A stretch of DNA of 64,000 nt, taken from the NCBI GenBank assembly GCA_013138735.1, contig WTCE01000032.1, forward strand, positions 1-64,000, in the 5' to 3' direction. Every line of letters begins with the position of its first letter. Position 1 is the first letter of the stretch. Below the pieces are notes generated by a model. That model had not been told where the DNA came from, ran no database searches, and saw nothing but the letters and a program-made list of their open reading frames with translations. Source of the DNA: Crocinitomix sp. GTDB lineage: Bacteria; Bacteroidota; Bacteroidia; Flavobacteriales_D; Crocinitomicaceae. A program made the translations under genes and the position numbers. Below, one piece after another: positions 40,964 through 61,193 of this stretch.

Positions 40964-42700
40964 TTATTCGGTTGAATTTTGACTTTGAATTGTCAGGTTA
41001 TATTTTGTAATATTTTCGTACCCCAAAATTCCAAATTCTAAACCACAATCGTCAGGATCGTAATTTATGAGAATCGAATACATAATGTTTTCTCCATTAC
41101 TATCCATGTCCAATATTTGGTGTTGAATATTTAAGTGCCAAGATCTCCCAGACCAATACCTTTCTGTGAGTATATTGTCGACTTCCCAACCACTCAAATA
41201 ACCGCTGTTAGATTCATCTTTTCCATATATCGAAGATATTTGTCCCACCATATTCGAAAGGTCTTCAATTTGAAAATTTCTTTTTTTTAGGAAAAAATTC
41301 GTATTTATTGATTCATCTTCTTTTGAATGCCTTATTTTAAATTCAACAGTATCGAAAAAACCAAATTCATTATGTGGCAGTTGCATTCTGTAGTTTTTAA
41401 TGACTGCATTTTCATGCTCTTCTTGATCAATAAATTCAGAAATTTCTCTTAATGTATCATAATCATTTTTTAGAAGCTCAAGAATAGTCTTTTTAATTAC
41501 TTTTTTTGTTGGTTTATATTTTATTGTAAACTGCAGTTGTTTTTTAGGCTCTATCAAATATTTTAGCCAAAAACTAGTGTCATCAAAAATCCACCCTGAA
41601 AAACATTCATCTGCATAGTTCTTTGTCTTTCCCTTAGCTATTTTCTTTATTTTTCCATGCTCTCTAAAAGATGAATTCCTTTCGTCATCATAGAGCCCTT
41701 CTCCGAGTTGTAAAAGAAGGTCATTTGAAAAAATGATAACATCTTCGGCATTGTTAGTTGAAGTATAGAGTATATATTCTCTTTCCCCGTTTTTATATAA
41801 TTTATACTCTAAACCTGAAAAGATATTGAATAAATTACAATCATTCTTTATGTAAACTTCAATTACCCCCATTTCTACATCTTCTTTGGCTATTGACAAA
41901 CCACTTTCCGAAATTTTTGTCATACTCCAAATATCGAGATTCAAGTTATTCAAAATTTGGTCTTTATCATTATACATAACAGATTCGCAAAACGTCGCAA
42001 TCGAAAAGTATTTGTTATCATTAAAGTGAAAATCTCCAATTAATGAAGTTGATTCCCATGGAACTTGTTCTTTATTGGATAGGTTAATAACTGTAGATCG
42101 AACATTCTGTAAAACTTGTATAATACTTGATGTAGGAGAAAGAATTTCCTTTAATAACACAGAAGTATATAAACCATTTTCTCCATCTCCATCCGAAGCT
42201 GTTTTATCTGGTGCTGTGGAGTAAGCGATTAAAGTTCCGTATGGAGCGCTCATGTATGAAAGTCCCTGCCTGGAAGGAGACCTAGTCCAAGAACGTTTGA
42301 AAGGATTATTTCTACAAGCATCTAGAATGACAAAGTTTGTTTCATTCAAAGCACCCTCCATTATTGAAAGTATCATATTAGCATTGATGCAATCATACTC
42401 GACTTGTTTTTCAGTTAGAGGGTTAGCATCCTTTGGAATTAGGTAATTGACACCGTCTACTTGCATCCCGTGACCTGCGAAATAGAAAAGACCAATTTTG
42501 TATTGATTTAAGTCTTTACCAAATTGATTAATTGATTGTTTAAATTCTCTATAAGATAAGTCTGTTAATTTGATAACGGTAAAACCTAATTTAGACAACA
42601 CATCACTCATGGAGTGAACATCATTGACAGGGTTTTTTAATTTACTCGCGTAATCATAATCAGAAACTCCAATAAGTAAAGCTAATCTTTTGTCTTCCAT
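40964..42700 (-). CDS. Caspase-like (peptidase C14) protein with uncharacterised C-terminal region
   Basis: A 578-aa cytoplasmic protein. Residues 1-235 are a caspase p20-like peptidase: start RLALLIGVSDYDYASKLKNP, catalytic His77 in FYFAGHGMQ, catalytic Cys129 in VILDACRNNPF, and the substrate-side segment GTLIAYSTAPDKTASDGDGE. The remaining 340 residues have no recognised domain; they are beta-rich and polar, with many aromatic residues. Bacterial caspase-like proteins often act as proteases in cell-death or anti-phage systems, fused or paired with a sensor. Here the C-terminus could be that sensor. The gene ends the module between repeats A and B. Confidence 0.88.
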   Translation of the reverse strand: MEDKRLALLIGVSDYDYASKLKNPVNDVHSMSDVLSKLGFTVIKLTDLSYREFKQSINQFGKDLNQYKIGLFYFAGHGMQVDGVNYLIPKDANPLTEKQVEYDCINANMILSIMEGALNETNFVILDACRNNPFKRSWTRSPSRQGLSYMSAPYGTLIAYSTAPDKTASDGDGENGLYTSVLLKEILSPTSSIIQVLQNVRSTVINLSNKEQVPWESTSLIGDFHFNDNKYFSIATFCESVMYNDKDQILNNLNLDIWSMTKISESGLSIAKEDVEMGVIEVYIKNDCNLFNIFSGLEYKLYKNGEREYILYTSTNNAEDVIIFSNDLLLQLGEGLYDDERNSSFREHGKIKKIAKGKTKNYADECFSGWIFDDTSFWLKYLIEPKKQLQFTIKYKPTKKVIKKTILELLKNDYDTLREISEFIDQEEHENAVIKNYRMQLPHNEFGFFDTVEFKIRHSKEDESINTNFFLKKRNFQIEDLSNMVGQISSIYGKDESNSGYLSGWEVDNILTERYWSGRSWHLNIQHQILDMDSNGENIMYSILINYDPDDCGLEFGILGYENITKYNLTIQSQNSTE

Positions 42701-52351: not shown

Positions 52352-52446
52352 TGCAATTTAAGAAAAAAATTAAACTGAACCTATTTAACTTTAAACGAAA
52401 TAAGAGGCTAGATGGTTGATGCAATAAACCCGATTACTTTAAAATT

Positions 52447-53049
52447 TTATATGAAAGCGGAAATTATCTTAAGCAAATTCTGAATTTTTTGATGTTGAGA
52501 TTTGCTGACACTTAGTGTCTTTTCATTTGACATTAGCAATTCTCCACCGTTGCTTTTTAAATAGGCCTGCACCTCAGTCAAATTCGCAATATAAGTGCGG
52601 TGAATTCTAGTAAAACATGGTTCTATCAGGACTTTTTCAAATGATTTTATGGTTCTGGAAACTAAAATTGGTCTTGCCGTTCTTAAATAAATTTTTGTAT
52701 AATTACTAGTAGCCTCCAAGTAGACGATCTCTTTTTTATATATAAACTGGGTTCCATTGCTTATTGGAATAGCAATTTTATCAGACTCTTTTACCTCTTT
52801 AAAATCTAACAACCTATCCTCTCGAGCAAACTCATTGACTCTTCTTCTTCCTAGAATCTTTTTAATTAGCTCTCCAAAATCTTCTGAATAGATAGGCCCT
52901 AACAAATAACTGAAAAGTTTCTTTTCTATCCCTTCCAATTCAAGTGGACTATCTGAGGCGGCAAACATTGTTCTAAAATTGTTGACCACTAGCTCTTGAT
53001 CAATTTTCGTAAGTCCGTTCAGTTGATTGTTATGTTCTAGCTGATTCAT
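52447..53049 (-). CDS. LytTR-type DNA-binding regulator without receiver domain
   Basis: A 200-aa cytoplasmic regulator. Residues 1-85 have no recognised domain (no CheY-like Asp pocket). Residues about 95-195 are LytTR: KKEIVYLEATSNYTKIYLRT, ILVSRTIKSFEKVLI, FTRIHRTYIANLTEVQAYLK and TLSVSKSQHQKI. LytTR proteins bind direct repeats about 21 bp apart; two such repeats stand before the lipoprotein genes upstream on the same strand (55129-55162 and 57261-57294), making those the likely targets. It is probably transcribed separately because terminators lie at 53229 and 53318. Confidence 0.9.
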   Translation of the reverse strand: MNQLEHNNQLNGLTKIDQELVVNNFRTMFAASDSPLELEGIEKKLFSYLLGPIYSEDFGELIKKILGRRRVNEFAREDRLLDFKEVKESDKIAIPISNGTQFIYKKEIVYLEATSNYTKIYLRTARPILVSRTIKSFEKVLIEPCFTRIHRTYIANLTEVQAYLKSNGGELLMSNEKTLSVSKSQHQKIQNLLKIISAFI

Positions 53050-53228
53050 AAGTTTGTGTTTTAGGTTACCACAAATTTAACCCTGACAAAGGATACCTAA
53101 CTGAACGTCAATCATTTTTGGTTCTGACTTAAGTCTCCTTGCCCTTTGAGTTATATCATTTCTATATCTGACGAAAGTCAGGTAGTTAAAATGAGAAGGA
53201 TATGCATCATACCTCATAACATAACACC

Positions 53229-53261
53229 AAAAAAGGGTCTCGATTGCTCGGACCCTTTTTT
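53229..53261. terminator. Hairpin terminator between the LytTR gene and the lipoprotein cluster
   Basis: AAAAAAGGGTC pairs with GACCCTTTTTT and carries T-rich tails in both directions. No gene reads into it directly; 53050-53228 contains a small hairpin CTGACGAAAGTCAG (53168-53181) but no convincing ORF. Confidence 0.75.
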
Positions 53262-53317
53262 TTGAGATATGTCTATTCCTGAAATAGCCTTACATAAATA
53301 GAAGGTTATGGAAGAAC

Positions 53318-53358
53318 AAAAAAAAGAGAGTATCTGGAATACAGACCTCTCTTTTTTT
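53318..53358 (-). terminator. Terminator of the lipoprotein B1 gene
   Basis: AAAAAAAGAGAG pairs with CTCTCTTTTTTT, about 70 nt past the stop at 53429. Between them lies ATTCGAATCGAAT. Confidence 0.8.
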
Positions 53359-53428
53359 GATAGTGCTAATTATATAACTATTTATACAAAAGAGCAATAG
53401 CTATTTATTCGAATCGAATTACAAATTA

Positions 53429-54190
53429 TTACGAATGGTTTGCAATAATAGAGAATGCAGCTCCGTAAACAATTGATCCTACAGGTCCCAAAAGTAATCC
53501 GTAAAGTGCTCCTCCAGCATCTGCAAGAATTACCTTATCTGTATCATCCATTGCTGTCGCAAGTTGATCAGGTGTTAAAAGATCCAAAGTCTCAGGAGAA
53601 TGCCAAAACACAGTTGACTCATTGAAGACATCTACAAAAGTATTGGCGTACCATACATCTGATCCAGTCCAAGACATTCCTGCAATATTATTAACAGATG
53701 CCAATATTTCTTCGCTTGCTACTTCAGACATAACTAGATCATTGATATTCAATAATTCCGTTGTTAAATCTGGACTTATTTCGCCTGTAATCTCCAAATC
53801 TGTAATAAGAATTTCAAAATTATAGGTTTCTGGATCCAACTCTGTTCTGTCCTCGCTACGATTGAAGAATGCTAATTCTGATGCAACTTTATCCAATTTA
53901 TCAAAATCAAGTGCTTGCATATCATCCGCAATGAACACCTCTGGTTTAGCCTCTGTTAGCAAGTCCATTAGTTGATTTCTCACTTCTTGAAGATCAGTAG
54001 TCTTTTTTAAATCTTTTTCGTTCACGAGATATAAATTAAGTGCAAAATTGTGATATTCTCCAATACGTTCTTCAATTGGTTTTTCAGCAGCTGGTTCTAC
54101 ATTTATTTCTTCTTTCAAATCTTTCTCACAGGCGATTAAAGCCATTCCGATAAGAGCTATTGAAAGCCCTGCGTATATTTTACGTTTCAT
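53429..54190 (-). CDS. Lipoprotein B1 with glycine-rich hydrophobic C-terminus
   Basis: A 253-aa lipoprotein with lipobox LIAC at about 18-21. The helical, acidic body (about 40-215) ends in DTDKVILADAGGALYGLLLG, then PVGSIVYGAAFSIIANHS, a glycine-spaced hydrophobic tail. The product of 55634-56338 has the same plan, and the two share 5' leaders, so they are paralogues from a tandem duplication. The tail could insert into or span a membrane; resemblance to pore-forming bacteriocin tails is only a pattern. It is the last gene of the cluster. Confidence 0.75.
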   Translation of the reverse strand: MKRKIYAGLSIALIGMALIACEKDLKEEINVEPAAEKPIEERIGEYHNFALNLYLVNEKDLKKTTDLQEVRNQLMDLLTEAKPEVFIADDMQALDFDKLDKVASELAFFNRSEDRTELDPETYNFEILITDLEITGEISPDLTTELLNINDLVMSEVASEEILASVNNIAGMSWTGSDVWYANTFVDVFNESTVFWHSPETLDLLTPDQLATAMDDTDKVILADAGGALYGLLLGPVGSIVYGAAFSIIANHS

Positions 54191-54260
54191 TTTAATTTGT
54201 TTTAGGTAAATTTTTATAGTTCTTACTTTGTTATAGGAGTGTTCAGTTTATTCTCCCGTT
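54191..54260 (-). promoter_or_regulatory. Conserved leader of B1
   Basis: On the minus strand ACGGGAGAATAAACTGAACA, CTCCTATAACAAAGTAAG and CTAAAACAAATTAAAATG recur before B2 (56339-56408) with few changes. The rest of the gap to A1 (54261-54405) shows nothing further. Confidence 0.65.
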
Positions 54261-54405
54261 AGTGCCATTCTTTTTACAGCGAAAATTCCTTTTATTTATT
54301 TACCATTTAGTGGCTGACTTTGGATAGTTCGTACTCGTCGATTGGACTAACGATTGTTTATTTGATTGTGTTAAATTTTGTATGTAATATTCTTGTGGCT
54401 ACTGA

Positions 54406-55032
54406 CTAGTACATTAAATCCAAGGTAACAGAGGTGTATTCTCCCGCTTCAATGTCAAAATTAGCCATGTACACTCCTGCTGGAACAACTGTTCCGTGTG
54501 GCAATTCAAAAATATCACAAGCTGTTTCCGTTAAAGCAATTTCTTCTTCGATTGGGAAAAGCCCATCTTCAGTAATCGCACATTCAAGTACTTCTGGTCG
54601 TGGATAAAGTTGCAGTTTCAGTTCTCCTGTTCCTACATCTAATAACCCAGCTACAACGTTTTGTGTAATTTCTCCCCATGGGAAAGGAAAACTTGTTGGA
54701 TCCCCAAATGGATCAGAAGGGTCGGAACACCAACCAAAGCATCCTACGCAACCTGTCCCAAAGCCAATTTCCCAAGGAAATTTTGGGTAAAGCAATCTAT
54801 CTCCACCATTACCTATAGCTCTTTCAGTTAATTCTGTGTTGTCAACAGGTACAATCGTCAGTAAGAAGTCACTTGCTTCCTGATCACCTCTTGCATCAAG
54901 AAATTCTTCTAAAGTCATTCTTGAATTGATCTCCTCAAGTTGATTTGATTCTTGTACATCTTCTTTTGTACATGAAGAAAAGGCAGCCATTAAAACCGTA
55001 AGGCTTCCTAATACTAATTGTGTTACTTTCAT
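54406..55032 (-). CDS. Lipoprotein A1 with CxxCxGxC motif
   Basis: A 208-aa lipoprotein (lipobox FSSC at about 18-21). A shared N-terminal segment (TLEEFLDARGDQEASDFLL) is followed by the cysteine motif CVGCFGWC (about 94-101) and a Phe-Pro stretch SFPFPWGEI. The C-terminal beta domain ends VYMANFDIEAGEYTSVTLDL. Its paralogue A2 (56535) keeps the Cys spacing and overall length. The motif may hold a metal or disulfides. It lies upstream of B1 and downstream of a 21-bp-phased operator. Confidence 0.75.
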   Translation of the reverse strand: MKVTQLVLGSLTVLMAAFSSCTKEDVQESNQLEEINSRMTLEEFLDARGDQEASDFLLTIVPVDNTELTERAIGNGGDRLLYPKFPWEIGFGTGCVGCFGWCSDPSDPFGDPTSFPFPWGEITQNVVAGLLDVGTGELKLQLYPRPEVLECAITEDGLFPIEEEIALTETACDIFELPHGTVVPAGVYMANFDIEAGEYTSVTLDLMY

Positions 55033-55128
55033 TATTATTTGTTTTTAGATTAATACTCGTTGTTATTTGAAACCAATCTAGCGACCTTCTTCGGATAAAA
55101 AGAAGCCTAAACAGCGGGTGAAAGGTTT

Positions 55129-55162
55129 GAATGCGTGAATACACATTTTGAATGAGCGAATG
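55129..55162 (-). promoter_or_regulatory. Phased direct repeats upstream of A1 (LytTR-like operator)
   Basis: GAATGCGTGAATA (55129) and GAATGAGCGAATG (55150) start 21 bp apart, 97 nt before the A1 start. The same arrangement stands before A2. Confidence 0.65.
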
Positions 55163-55401
55163 ATTTTTAAAAAAAATAGTTTCCGTTGGTTGATGGATCA
55201 TTATGCGGTTAACACAGTAGAAGAAATACTTCAATTTTCTAATACCAGAAATCAACAATAGCAAGACAGTATAAATAAACTGCCTTAACTTGACTCTAAA
55301 TAAAACCAGACCTGAATATCTCCTTATACAATAAGAACCTTTGTCAGTCAAATGAATGTGAAAACAATATTTACCATTCACTCCATTTTATTAAGGGACA
55401 A

Positions 55402-55524
55402 GAACTTGTGGTAAATGGAGGTTTTGAAGATTTCATTGCGTGTCCGGATTGAACCAGGCAGATGGAAACCTTGGAGCACTGGTTAAACATTGATGCAACA
55501 CCTCGCTTATTACAATGTATTTGA
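55402..55524 (+). pseudogene. Remnant of an NGxFE-type secreted protein gene
   Basis: The plus-strand frame reads ELVVNGGFEDFIACPD, a stop codon (TGA at 55450), then TRQMETLEHWLNIDATPRLL. This matches the start of a common Bacteroidetes T9SS cargo family that I recall beginning LVPNGSFEEYxxCP and continuing with a HW-x-NxDxTPD pattern. No upstream signal peptide and no long continuation are present, so only a broken piece remains in the gap 55033-55633. Confidence 0.55.
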
Positions 55525-55556
55525 GTGATTCTAGATAAACAAGGTTTTATTAATCG

Positions 55557-55586
55557 AAAAAGGCTGCCAAAATTTGGCAGCCTTTT
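55557..55586 (-). terminator. Terminator after lipoprotein B2
   Basis: AAAAGGCTGCCAAA pairs with TTTGGCAGCCTTTT around a 1-nt apex, with a T run on the minus strand, about 50 nt past the stop at 55634. It separates the two lipoprotein pairs. Confidence 0.85.
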
Positions 55587-55633
55587 CATTAACCCTGAGA
55601 ATTAAACCTCAGTAAGTGTTAGTCATAATTAAA

Positions 55634-56338
55634 TTACGATTGCATTACAACTGATATTGCTGATGCAGTTGCTGCTCCACCAGGGCCTCCAAAAACAGCT
55701 CCAATAAGATCACAAGCCACTACTTTATCCCAATCAATTGCAGCCACATCTAATCCAAGATCTGTTCCTACATAAGAATAACCATTTAAACCACCTTCTG
55801 CTATTGGAGCCCAAAATGTTGCTGACGCTCTTGCTACAGCAAAGTGAGCATAATAAATGTTCAACTCATCTCCAGAGAATAGGCCTTCTGCTTCCATTTC
55901 TCTTGTATTAACTGCATCAATAAAGCTAGAAAGATCTGGACTAGCAGCAAGTTCATCCACTGTAATCATAACCTGATCTTGCAATTCTGTTGAAACAGGC
56001 GCTAAACTTAGCCATTCAGACAAATTTATAGCCTCAAAGGTAGTTCCATACTCAGGAAGAGTCGCTAAAGTCACAGCACCACCATATTCTACATTTAAAA
56101 TATCCATCACCAATTCTCGTTGTGCCATCTCACCATAAGGAGGCGTTTCTGTGATATTTTCTAGAATATACTGTAAGTCACTATTGTGAACAATACCTTC
56201 CTCTTCCATTGGATTCACAAATCCACTTCTTGTAGGTGCTTCATCATTTGATGGAACTTCAATTTCTTCTTTATTGCAACTTCCTAATAAAAGTGCAAAA
56301 CTCATAATTCCGGATAATACTAATGTTTTCTTTTTCAT
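55634..56338 (-). CDS. Lipoprotein B2 with glycine-rich hydrophobic C-terminus
   Basis: A 234-aa lipoprotein (lipobox LGSC at about 18-21), followed by an acidic linker. The body is helical. The C-terminus reads DWDKVVACDLIGAVFGGPGG and then AATASAISVVMQS, paralleling the DTDKVILADAGGALYG tail of B1; shared features are DKV, a Gly-Ala run and a GP turn. Sequence between the tails is divergent, so the duplication is old or the body evolves fast. It follows A2 by about 200 nt. Confidence 0.75.
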   Translation of the reverse strand: MKKKTLVLSGIMSFALLLGSCNKEEIEVPSNDEAPTRSGFVNPMEEEGIVHNSDLQYILENITETPPYGEMAQRELVMDILNVEYGGAVTLATLPEYGTTFEAINLSEWLSLAPVSTELQDQVMITVDELAASPDLSSFIDAVNTREMEAEGLFSGDELNIYYAHFAVARASATFWAPIAEGGLNGYSYVGTDLGLDVAAIDWDKVVACDLIGAVFGGPGGAATASAISVVMQS

Positions 56339-56408
56339 TTTAATTTGTTTTAGATAAAAATTTATACTACTTACTTTGTTGTAGGAGTGTTCAGTTTATT
56401 CTCCCGTT
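56339..56408 (-). promoter_or_regulatory. Conserved leader of B2
   Basis: It carries the same blocks as the B1 leader: ACGGGAGAATAAACTGAACA, CTCCTACAACAAAGTAAG and CTAAAACAAATTAAAATG. Conservation of untranslated sequence alongside diverged proteins suggests a regulatory role. Confidence 0.65.
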
Positions 56409-56534
56409 ATCTTCATATCTGCTTGGGCCGAAAAATTCTTTTACTTATTTGCCATAGTCGCGTTTACTGATTTTGGATAACGATTGTTTATTTTAATGCG
56501 TTAACTTTTATTGTGATATTCTTGATGTCTCCAA

Positions 56535-57164
56535 TTAATAGAGTAGATCGACTGTAACAGAACTATAGGCTCCTTCGATATCAGTACTGGCCGTGTAGAC
56601 CCCGGCTTGAATAGAACTACCATGCGGAAGGCCTACCAAATCACAATACTCGTTGTCTAAAAATATGTCGCTGTAGATTGGGAAAAATCCGTCCGCAGTA
56701 AAAGCACTCTCCAGCTCTTCTGGTGCTGGATGGATAACCAGTTTTAAACCTGTTGGTCCTGCATCAAAGACTCCTGAAACGGAAGTCGTTTCAATGGTTG
56801 GCCAAGGGAAAGGGAATGGAAAAGGATCTCCAGGAAATGGAAAAGGATCTCCTACGGAACAAGCTCCATTACAAATCATGCAATCCCAACGAAAATTTGT
56901 ATTTGTTGGAATCCAAATAATTGCGCGATCTCCAGAATCAAAAACAAATCGTTTTGTAAGTTCTCTATTATCTATAGGATCATGCGAGTTTAAAAAGTCA
57001 CGTTCGTCCTGCGTTTCTCTTGCGTCAATAAACTCATCAAGCGTAAGTTGTGTAGTGTTACTTTCTTCTGATTGATTTGTTTCTGCGACTTCCTCTTTCG
57101 AGCAAGAAGAAAAGGTAACCATTAAAGCTGTAAGGCTGCCTAATATTATTTTAGTTGCTTTCAT
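56535..57164 (-). CDS. Lipoprotein A2 with CxxCxGxC motif
   Basis: A 209-aa lipoprotein paralogous to A1 along its length: start MKATKIILGSLTALMVTFSS with a Cys following, LTLDEFIDARETQDERDFL, the motif CMICNGAC (about 97-104), a Pro-Phe repeat DPFPFPGDPFPFPFPWP, and the end VYTASTDIEGAYSSVTVDLL. The Pro-Phe repeat is expanded compared with A1. It is the first gene of the duplicated cluster, with an operator-like repeat pair 97 nt upstream. Confidence 0.78.
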   Translation of the reverse strand: MKATKIILGSLTALMVTFSSCSKEEVAETNQSEESNTTQLTLDEFIDARETQDERDFLNSHDPIDNRELTKRFVFDSGDRAIIWIPTNTNFRWDCMICNGACSVGDPFPFPGDPFPFPFPWPTIETTSVSGVFDAGPTGLKLVIHPAPEELESAFTADGFFPIYSDIFLDNEYCDLVGLPHGSSIQAGVYTASTDIEGAYSSVTVDLLY

Positions 57165-57260
57165 TTTGTGTTTATTTTAGATTAATATTCGTTGTTGTCT
57201 GGTACCAATCTAGTGACCTCTCTTGGATAAAAAGGAGTCAAATCAGTGGCTGAAAGGTTT

Positions 57261-57294
57261 GAATGCGCGAATGCACATTTTGAATGAGCGAATG
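57261..57294 (-). promoter_or_regulatory. Phased direct repeats upstream of A2 (LytTR-like operator)
   Basis: GAATGCGCGAATG (57261) and GAATGAGCGAATG (57282) are 13-bp direct repeats exactly 21 bp apart, 97 nt before the A2 start. The rest of 57165-57509 is a leader and promoter region without genes. Confidence 0.7.
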
Positions 57295-57468
57295 AATTTT
57301 AAAGAATGGGAATTAAGTCGATCAGGTGACTAATTATGCGGTTAGCGCAGTAGGAAAAATGCATTAATTCACCAATGTTGGAAACCTACAATGGAAAGAC
57401 TGTTTAAATAATCTGAATTAATTGTCTATAAATAAAACCAAAGTTTCAGTTTCTAATCAAAATTTATC

Positions 57469-60185: not shown

Positions 60186-61193
60186 TTATTCCCCTTGATA
60201 ATCATCTTCAAACCAAGTACCGTACTTGAAGGTATCCGTACCTGAATAATACCACTTTCCTTTTCCTTGGAAGTATCCATTGACAAATTCGCCTTCATAA
60301 TAATCGCCGCTTGCAAATAGATACTTGCCCTCCCCATGTAATTCGCCATTTACGAAATCACCTTCATAAATATCATCATTATAATAGTATTGAGTGCCAG
60401 TGCCCTCCTTTTCATCTGCCGCCCATTCTCCTTGATAGGTTGTGCCATCTGGATACTGATAAAAACCTTGACCTGATCGTTCGTCGTTTTCATATTCACC
60501 TTCATACCAATCAGATTCATCATAGATTAACTTACCCTCACCCTCAAATTTAGCATTAACATGATCACCTTCGTAATAACTTGTTGGCGAAAAATAAAAT
60601 TTACCTACACCATTCGGTATTCCATTTACCACAGGTCCATCATACAAATAATAGGTATCCCAATATTCTGATGTGATATATTGTAGTTCATATTTCACAT
60701 AAGTTCGAGAGGAGCTTTCTTCGACTGATAAATATTCAGGTGAAGGCGAAAACAAATAGTCAATCTCATCCCCATGTAATGCAAATATCGAATGAGGCTG
60801 CACAGCAAACATGATGTTAATCAACTCTTGCGATTCATCAGTAAGATCATCTGAATAATCCGCACGAATTATGACACATGTATCAACGGAATTATTAATA
60901 ATGAGGTCTCCTCTTTCAAGTTTAGGTATGGTTTCTTTTGTCCCATCTTTGAATTCAAATTCTACGGAGCCTAACATAGAATATTGTGAAGCTACCTCAT
61001 CTTCAATCACAATAATGGTTGTTCTTAGACTGAAAAAGATCACTCCCACAACCACTGCTGCAATAGCACCTGAACCAGCACTAATATTGAAGGCTACTTT
61101 CTTTTTTTCATGCAAAAACCAATAAATCGATCCTCCGATTACAATTACACTTATTCCGATTAATATAAGAAAGCCGTTTGAACTGAATAACAT
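60186..61193 (-). CDS. MORN-repeat membrane protein
   Basis: A 335-aa protein with two N-terminal transmembrane helices (about 8-26 and 36-56). A middle domain (60-175) is of unknown fold. Residues about 180-335 carry six to seven MORN repeats (YEGEYENDERSGQGFYQYPD, YEGDFVNGELHGEGKYLFA). MORN arrays bind lipids or proteins in eukaryotes; in Bacteroidetes their role is unclear. The repeats begin after a linker and probably face one side of the membrane. Confidence 0.85.
   Translation of the reverse strand: MLFSSNGFLILIGISVIVIGGSIYWFLHEKKKVAFNISAGSGAIAAVVVGVIFFSLRTTIIVIEDEVASQYSMLGSVEFEFKDGTKETIPKLERGDLIINNSVDTCVIIRADYSDDLTDESQELINIMFAVQPHSIFALHGDEIDYLFSPSPEYLSVEESSSRTYVKYELQYITSEYWDTYYLYDGPVVNGIPNGVGKFYFSPTSYYEGDHVNAKFEGEGKLIYDESDWYEGEYENDERSGQGFYQYPDGTTYQGEWAADEKEGTGTQYYYNDDIYEGDFVNGELHGEGKYLFASGDYYEGEFVNGYFQGKGKWYYSGTDTFKYGTWFEDDYQGE

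What the first reader, a model, noticed from the sequence alone, without database searches (positions are those of the whole stretch)
52447..57294. LytTR regulator beside a tandem duplication of a two-lipoprotein unit
The order A2-B2-A1-B1 repeats a lipoprotein pair together with its leaders and operators, next to a receiver-less LytTR protein. LytTR regulators often control secreted peptides, bacteriocins or quorum responses. A dedicated lipoprotein pair under such control is not a system I can name.
Basis: partly seen in the sequence, partly recalled or inferred. Interest (0 to 1): 0.7.

Follow-up and report, generated by a model that had tools for sequence, protein, structure and literature searches.

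The report
Duplicated surface lipoprotein pair, probable weapon
A bacterium carries an extra block with two copies of a surface-protein pair plus a gene switch; one partner belongs to a widespread, undescribed family that looks like membrane-damaging weapons used between bacteria.

Summary
Observation confirmed: minus-strand genes A1-B1-A2-B2, then LytTR. A1/A2 are 50% identical; B1/B2 have no significant BLASTP match (E 1.2) although the leader DNA just before them is 89% identical. The block (about 52366-57420) is an insertion: its neighbours are adjacent in 6 of 6 same-genus genomes in which gdhA was found. A was found only in this genome. B belongs to an unnamed family: a profile from 15 foreign homologues finds B1 and B2 at E 7e-20 and 1e-20; no Pfam or NCBIfam model covers the 23 members scanned. 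Marks: G..HN, S..FW, glycine-zipper stretch. Elsewhere 9 of 20 homologues are followed by a small multi-TM gene (controls 2 of 105), and tandem copies in one genome share a 96% identical constant part, then different glycine-zipper ends, each followed by a different TM gene: a polymorphic toxin/immunity layout. Best reading: B are membrane-active surface toxins; A is partner or immunity (unproven); LytTR, with a decayed receiver remnant, switches them through a 21-bp-spaced repeat found only before A1 and A2. Against: the window's B genes lack the TM gene, and LytTR is not a regular neighbour of B outside this genome. Toxicity and regulation are inferred.

The parts
56535..57164 (-). A1, 209 aa lipoprotein, orphan family A (C-S-K-E-E after the lipobox: surface-export-like signal)
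55634..56338 (-). B1, 234 aa lipoprotein of the G..HN / S..FW / glycine-zipper family
54406..55032 (-). A2, 208 aa lipoprotein, 50% identical to A1
53429..54190 (-). B2, 253 aa lipoprotein of the same family as B1, closest to a homologue in genome G741
52447..53049 (-). LytTR DNA-binding protein, 200 aa, with the C-terminal third of a decayed receiver (YLLGP for YLLKP; the part with acidic pocket and acceptor Asp is missing)
57258..57294 (-). direct repeat CATTCGCTCATTCAAA / CATTCGCGCATTCAAA at period 21: candidate LytTR operator before A1
55126..55162 (-). the same repeat, less perfect, before A2
57205..57212 (-). candidate -7 box TAGATTGG (one mismatch to TAnnTTTG), starting 48 nt before the A1 ATG; same at 55073-55080 before A2
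   Evidence: consensus from PMC9723704 passages
56323..56409 (-). conserved leader before B1 (89% identical to the one before B2; includes the first codons)
54175..54261 (-). conserved leader before B2
55557..55587 (-). inverted repeat with T run after B1, read by eye as a terminator (not listed by the scan)
   Evidence: sequence
53228..53358 (-). two hairpins with T runs between B2 and the LytTR gene, read by eye as terminators (not listed)
   Evidence: sequence
52366..57420 (.). approximate extent of the inserted block; its flanks (1193-aa protein gene and gdhA) are adjacent in 6 same-genus genomes

Best explanation
The block is a genome-specific island for antagonism between bacteria. B1 and B2 are two variants of a class-wide family of membrane-active toxins, often lipidated, whose glycine-zipper stretch inserts into membranes of neighbouring cells (shown: family membership, motifs, polymorphic toxin/immunity layout in relatives; inferred: toxicity and delivery). 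A1 and A2 are their dedicated surface lipoprotein partners, either co-component or lipoprotein immunity, standing where many relatives have a small TM gene (inferred). Each unit starts at a promoter region with a 21-bp-spaced direct repeat that the neighbouring LytTR protein binds to switch expression; the protein lacks the phospho-acceptor part of its receiver and so cannot be controlled by phosphorylation there (shown: repeat, its uniqueness, decayed receiver; inferred: binding and activation).
For: A profile of 15 foreign homologues finds B2 at E 1.1e-20 and B1 at 7.2e-20 among 3842 ORFs. The next gene encodes a 50-200 aa protein with 2 or more hydrophobic segments for 9 of 20 foreign homologues against 2 of 105 control genes, p 5e-7; counting related copies once, 7 of 17, p 9e-6. 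G451 tandem copies: held constant part 79 of 81 residues identical (267 nt at 96%), ends 20 of 57, a different TM gene after each, plus a truncated third cassette. The best match of B1 (G082a) and of B2 (G741) each sits before a small hydrophobic gene. B coding DNA has diverged to 0.35-0.57 identity, mostly near 0.4, while the leader before it holds 0.82-0.90. Export-signal match C-X-K-(D/E)2 in A1, A2 and B1 (rule from PMC5080379 passages). Operator geometry fits LytTR sites, 9-11 nt repeats with 11-13 nt spacer (PMC4847170 passages); sites unique in the genome. Both B loci found in this genome adjoin a LytTR gene.
Against: None of the three own-genome B genes has the small TM gene, and 11 of 20 foreign homologues lack one by the count used. 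A has no homologue, so its role rests on position alone; A1/A2 show ordinary constraint (NG86 dN 0.42, dS 1.46; the second method gave no value). B1's glycine-rich stretch is only mildly hydrophobic (best 19-residue mean 1.39, under the 1.6 used as TM threshold; B2 1.88). Some homologues (G572, G513, G451a) show no signal peptide by eye, so export is not general. The small TM proteins are not demonstrably one family (two weak pairs below E 0.01). LytTR is directly beside B only in this genome. Structure predictions failed.
Confidence: 0.5

Rival explanations
1. B and A are surface lipoproteins for adhesion, decoy or phage-receptor masking; the glycine-rich stretch is a structural helix pair, and diversity comes from antigenic or phage pressure. 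The small TM neighbours elsewhere are assembly partners, not immunity.
For: Surface-export-like signals; strong divergence of B; 11 of 20 foreign homologues without a small TM gene by the count used; G117 and G159 share another partner, a 354-aa exported protein; one homologue (G770) carries a stretch that matches a concanavalin-like or fimbrial lectin-type model.
Against: A constant part with exchanged glycine-zipper ends, each with its own small TM gene, and a truncated extra cassette is the layout of toxin/immunity pairs and has no ready adhesin counterpart.
Confidence: 0.25
2. B is a signal or quorum-type precursor: the LytTR protein and its sister at C149 sense a processed fragment of B, so B is regulator input rather than output.
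For: LytTR beside both B loci found in this genome, at C149 with a sensor-kinase-like gene upstream; LytTR regulators govern cell-density-linked circuits (PMC6193735 passages).
Against: No LytTR gene in the flanks held for 16 of 17 other genomes; the proteins are large (216-333 aa for most full-length members) with motifs spread over the whole length; the window LytTR lacks a working receiver.
Confidence: 0.1
3. LytTR adjacency is chance: this genome has 33 LytTR genes, and the island merely carries one or landed by one. A-B are controlled otherwise.
For: 33 LytTR genes; no LytTR beside most B homologues; two hairpins, read by eye, separate LytTR from B2.
Against: LytTR lies inside the inserted block; rough chance of adjacency within 400 bp at both loci 1.5e-5, computed after the fact; operator geometry.
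Confidence: 0.25
4. After duplication one B gene was replaced by recombination with a foreign allele while promoter, leader and A stayed (cassette swap).
For: B2 matches G741 at 59 bits and B1 matches G082a at 47 bits, B1-B2 only 22.7 bits; sharp drop of identity at the B start codon.
Against: Tree test does not reject B1+B2 as sisters, p 0.444; only 1 of 14 inner branches is well supported.
Confidence: 0.35

Closest known systems
Polymorphic toxin/immunity systems, in particular CDI ionophore toxins with 72-100 residue two-helix CdiI (PMC11630599, passages)
   Same: Variable membrane-active C-terminus with a putative glycine zipper, small very hydrophobic cognate neighbour, constant part (seen in G451/G633)
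   Different: No CdiA/CdiB; small proteins of 208-333 aa, many lipidated (one of 551 aa with a lectin-like stretch; the G451/G633 copies are shorter, two of them cut by contig ends); window copies have A instead of a TM neighbour
Cdz system of Caulobacter: CdzC, CdzD, CdzI (PMC5380434, passages)
   Same: Surface-attached glycine-zipper proteins with a small transmembrane immunity protein; two toxin-like proteins
   Different: CdzC/D are 86 and 84 aa and use type I secretion genes encoded beside them; none seen here; B is lipidated
BcpT/BcpI of Bacteroidales (PMC9308784, passages)
   Same: Outer-surface lipoprotein toxin with a lipoprotein immunity partner just downstream
   Different: No sequence relation claimed or tested; BcpT is 499 aa and BcpI 57 aa without the surface-export residues
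Two-component CDC-like toxins of Bacteroidota with a surface lipoprotein immunity (PMC11169675, abstract and outline only)
   Same: Two-protein antibacterial pore former; immunity by a surface lipoprotein, a precedent for A
   Different: A and B show no Pfam match to such folds
LytTR Regulatory Systems, HdrRM/BrsRM type (PMC6193735, passages)
   Same: LytTR protein and 9-nt repeats with about 12 nt spacer before bacteriocin-type genes
   Different: No membrane inhibitor gene beside the window's LytTR

Membership tests
LytTR DNA-binding proteins (PF04397) | LytTR domain above the curated cut-off | tested here: met
   54.5 bits, cut-off 22.6
LytTR-type response regulator | receiver with acidic pocket, acceptor Asp and KP lysine | tested here: not met
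   only the last third remains, YLLGP (alignment with ten regulators)
LytTR Regulatory System (LRS) | membrane inhibitor gene in operon with LytTR | tested here: not met
   neighbours are B2 and the 1193-aa protein gene; in the non-overlapping ORF list the only small TM-like ORFs are 29 and 32 aa on the other strand
B family (G..HN / S..FW / glycine zipper) | match to a profile built without the window's genome | tested here: met
   E 1.1e-20 and 7.2e-20
Polymorphic toxin system | constant N part with exchanged C-terminal ends | tested here: inconclusive
   met in G451/G633 homologues; B1/B2 differ along the whole coding part
Polymorphic toxin system | immunity-like small gene directly downstream | tested here: not met
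   absent for B1, B2 and C149; present for 9 of 20 foreign homologues
Polymorphic toxin system | toxicity relieved by cognate immunity protein | not testable with these tools
   bench work needed
Cdz-type glycine-zipper bacteriocin | type I secretion genes beside the toxin genes | tested here: not met
   none recognised by eye in the ORF lists of the window; no family scan of those ORFs
Surface-exported lipoprotein (LES, C-X-K-(D/E)2) | signal after the lipidated Cys | tested here: inconclusive
   A1, A2, B1 match, B2 (CEKDLKEE) only nearly; the rule is from Capnocytophaga and the paper gives other consensus letters for Flavobacterium

The most novel reading that the evidence does not exclude
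B founds an undescribed, class-wide family of polymorphic glycine-zipper toxins, many of them lipidated. In this island the usual small TM immunity gene has been replaced by an orphan surface lipoprotein (A), the toxin-partner unit was duplicated into two specificities under unchanged regulatory DNA, and a LytTR protein freed from phosphorylation serves as its private switch.
Probability: 0.3. Interest if true: 0.8.

Novelty: new variant of a known kind. Interest (0 to 1): 0.62.

Why it matters
Bacteroidota are abundant in seas and guts (general knowledge), yet few of their weapons are known. A compact signature (G..HN, S..FW, glycine zipper) now links 23 genes in 18 genomes that no Pfam or NCBIfam model covers as a family, and points to a ready test: each variable end with its neighbouring small membrane protein. 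If toxic, this is a new class of surface-borne toxin; the window shows a duplicated form with its own candidate regulator and a different candidate immunity protein.

Tried and rejected
Structure prediction of A (pLDDT 34.9) and B1 (30.6) from two-row alignments was useless, so no fold search was run. Pfam, NCBIfam, PADLOC and PHROGs gave nothing convincing for A, B1 or B2. Of 23 B-family members scanned, Pfam and NCBIfam each gave three families, each hit by one member: among them a lectin-like model (PF13385; member not named by the call) and the fimbrial model TafC (in G770, residues 98-274), DUF6861 (in G093a, below its cut-off); the rest I take for chance. PDB gave nothing for A2 and one E 0.79 hit for a four-row B profile. 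Plasmid records: no match to B1 or to the G741 homologue. Viral contigs: no A. Genome contigs by exact peptide words: no A; the second scan, with the G093 homologue, returned only a record holding that same protein, titled Crocinitomicaceae MAG.

A 135-aa protein before the G513 homologue looks like A by eye, but profile comparison gives no support: dropped. Of the weak A-profile hits in six other genomes I looked closely at one (L007) and at none of the rest beyond coordinates and scores. A weak hit of the first full-length B profile (L011) was also rejected.

Weak B-profile hits were dropped unless the ORF showed the motifs: one search listed 98 of 395 genomes at E 1 or less, and beside the own genome I kept 7 (G741, G572, G770, G633, G598, G513, G451); loci were given for the best matches only. 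One search listed 27 of 399 at E 0.1 or less, and I kept 10 beside the own genome. G082b, counted among the 20 foreign homologues, lacks the G..HN motif and is included for its glycine-zipper end and place; without it the count is 8 of 19. The TM count is a simple hydropathy rule.

RNA structure in the B leaders: no better than shuffles (z 1.12 and -0.62); Rfam: two hits far below their gathering scores. Cassette replacement of B: suggestive scores, not supported by the tree test. Circular permutation in C149 and G598: the order of motifs is plainly different, but rotating the sequence gains only about 6 bits for C149 and 2 for G598, so it stays a suggestion.

Literature: searches showed no paper on this family among the titles and abstract starts listed (capped lists; one search found no paper at all); most subscription papers are not held.

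Full report
WHAT IS THERE. Five genes lie on the minus strand between a gene for a 1193-aa secreted protein and gdhA (gene names of neighbours by eye): A1 57164-56535, B1 56338-55634, A2 55032-54406, B2 54190-53429, LytTR 53049-52447. A1 and A2 are 50% identical over their length. B1 and B2 do not match significantly in BLASTP (E 1.2). The DNA repeats are 235 nt at 80% and 87 nt at 89%, at offsets of 2132 and 2148, so a unit of about 2.13 kb (upstream region, A, leader, B) was duplicated. Along the two units identity in 60-nt windows is 0.68-0.85 upstream of A, 0.77-0.82 at the start of A, 0.40-0.68 further into A, up to 0.90 just before B, and 0.35-0.57, mostly near 0.4, inside B. In A, dN is 0.42 and dS 1.46, and third codon positions are 0.49 identical (NG86; a second method gave no value): the leader before B is more conserved than synonymous sites in A, which argues for function of the leader. 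The alignment of the two regions upstream of A runs on towards the start of gdhA, which suggests that the duplication took place at this site.

AN INSERTION. Nine genomes of the genus were searched, this one included; seven have gdhA. In all six others gdhA and the 1193-aa protein gene are direct neighbours, about 170-300 bp apart. In the window the match to that empty site ends on the left near 52366, about 15 bp beyond the start of the 1193-aa gene, and resumes on the right at about 57416-57430, 80-95 bp before gdhA. The five-gene block is therefore an insertion of about 5 kb in this genome. Misassembly was not tested.

A. Searches found A in this genome only: 1 of 59 genomes, itself included; 399 genomes of the order, where six other genomes gave only weak partial hits between 6e-4 and 0.0099; no viral contig; no genome contig by exact peptide words. 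No convincing Pfam, NCBIfam or PDB match.

B IS A FAMILY. A profile of the last 80 residues or so of B1 and B2 found two distant proteins (G062, E 0.003; G093, E 0.037). Both show, outside the searched part, a G..HN motif that B1 (GIVHN) and B2 (GEYHN) share. Two wider rounds (395 genomes of the class; 399 of the order), keeping only ORFs with the motifs, gave 20 genes in 17 genomes besides the three in this genome (one of the 20, G082b, is kept without the G..HN motif). A profile built from 15 of the foreign ones finds B2 at E 1.1e-20 and B1 at 7.2e-20 among 3842 ORFs. Common marks: G..HN, then S..[FYL]W, then D..GA..G, the start of a glycine-rich stretch (consensus of 23 rows). Nine of the 20 have a lipobox by the pattern used and three more by eye; G572, G513 and G451a show no signal peptide by eye. 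In the own-genome gene on contig C149 and in G598 the glycine-rich stretch precedes the other two motifs. No Pfam or NCBIfam model is hit by more than one of 23 members.

WHY A TOXIN FAMILY. (1) The next gene on the same strand encodes a protein of 50-200 aa with two or more hydrophobic segments for 9 of 20 foreign homologues, against 2 of 105 other genes of the same loci and 1 of 48 in the window (p 5e-7, or 9e-6 with related copies counted once). Two more (G062, 73 aa; G082a, 62 aa) look two-segment by eye but count one. (2) In G451 two tandem copies are 79 of 81 residues identical in the held constant part (267 nt, 96%), then differ (20 of 57), each followed by a different small TM gene; a third, truncated cassette carries about 100 nt of the constant part; G633 has the same constant part with another end and another TM gene. 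Exchange of ends together with a small neighbour is how toxin and immunity genes are arranged; immunity proteins of CDI ionophores are 72-100 residues and form two-helix hairpins (PMC11630599, passages), and CdzI of the glycine-zipper Cdz system is found mainly in the inner membrane (PMC5380434, passages). Toxicity itself is inferred. B1's stretch is only mildly hydrophobic (1.39; B2 1.88).

THE WINDOW'S VERSION. None of the three own-genome B genes has the small TM gene. In the window A stands before each B instead. Lipoproteins as immunity have precedents: BcpI (PMC9308784, passages) and the surface lipoprotein that blocks CDC-like pores (PMC11169675, abstract); the latter is also a two-component weapon. 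A1, A2 and B1 match the C-X-K-(D/E)2 surface-export signal, B2 nearly, so both partners may be on the surface. Whether A is immunity or co-toxin cannot be told. B2 is closest to the G741 protein (59 bits) and B1 to that of G082 (47 bits), each more than to the other (22.7 bits), but a tree cannot reject B1 and B2 as sisters (p 0.444).

REGULATION. The LytTR protein matches PF04397 well. It is not simply receiver-less: residues about 13-70 align with the last third of the receivers of ten response regulators, with YLLGP in place of YLLKP and without the part that holds the acidic pocket and acceptor Asp. Phosphorylation at that site is therefore excluded. Before A1 a 16-nt direct repeat recurs at 21 bp, 15 of 16 identical (0 of 2000 shuffles); it is conserved before A2 and, with up to three mismatches, occurs nowhere else in this genome or in 58 others. 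LytTR regulators bind two repeats of 9-11 nt with 11-13 nt between (PMC4847170, passages), which fits. A candidate -7 box starting 48 nt before the A start codons is conserved in both units. Two hairpins read by eye separate B2 from the LytTR gene, so it probably has its own promoter. This genome has 33 LytTR genes, which makes one neighbour unremarkable; but the third B-family gene of this genome, on C149, starts 180 bp after a complete LytTR response regulator gene with a sensor-kinase-like gene before it. Among the 18 foreign loci only one holds a LytTR gene (G117, 1.8 kb from B, opposite strand), and none an A gene by profile; some of those flanks are under 1 kb. The link of LytTR and B thus belongs to this genome, not to the family.

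VERDICT. Observation confirmed and sharpened; the proposed LytTR-A-B system is not conserved as such. B opens an unnamed family with the layout of polymorphic glycine-zipper toxins. The kind is known; the family and the lipoprotein-partner, LytTR-linked arrangement are new as far as the listings of searches show.

Noticed in passing
window 55395-55540, + strand: Between B1 and A2 lies a short broken reading frame (ELVVNGGFEDFIACPD then a stop), which looks like the remnant of the start of another secreted-protein gene.
   Followed up: partly
G000:C149 (L211 1501-6163): Own-genome locus with sensor-kinase-like gene, LytTR response regulator and a B-family lipoprotein whose motif order is changed (glycine zipper first), followed by genes that look like feoA and feoB by eye.
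   Followed up: partly
L178 5714-7806: Tandem array of B homologues with one constant part and exchanged ends, the two longer ones each followed by a different small TM gene, and a truncated extra cassette.
   Followed up: yes
L218 5625-7545 and L221 4801-6697: In G117 and G159 the B homologue is followed by a similar-looking 354-aa exported protein instead of a small TM protein, and its glycine-zipper end is replaced by another sequence: another possible effector type.
   Followed up: partly
L212 5448-8243: Two lipoproteins in tandem (G082), each followed by a small hydrophobic protein; the second lacks the G..HN motif.
   Followed up: partly
own genus, whole genomes: LytTR genes are very numerous in the three largest genomes of the genus (33, 41, 41) and few in the other six (7-16).
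   Followed up: no
window 40964-42700: Protein that looks by eye like a caspase-like peptidase (GVSDYDYA..., FYFAGHGMQ, LDACRNNPF), not searched.
   Followed up: no
window 60186-61193: Membrane-anchored protein with MORN-like YEGEF repeats by eye; in the three of six same-genus stretches where a match was found it is 49-65% identical while neighbours are over 80%.
   Followed up: no
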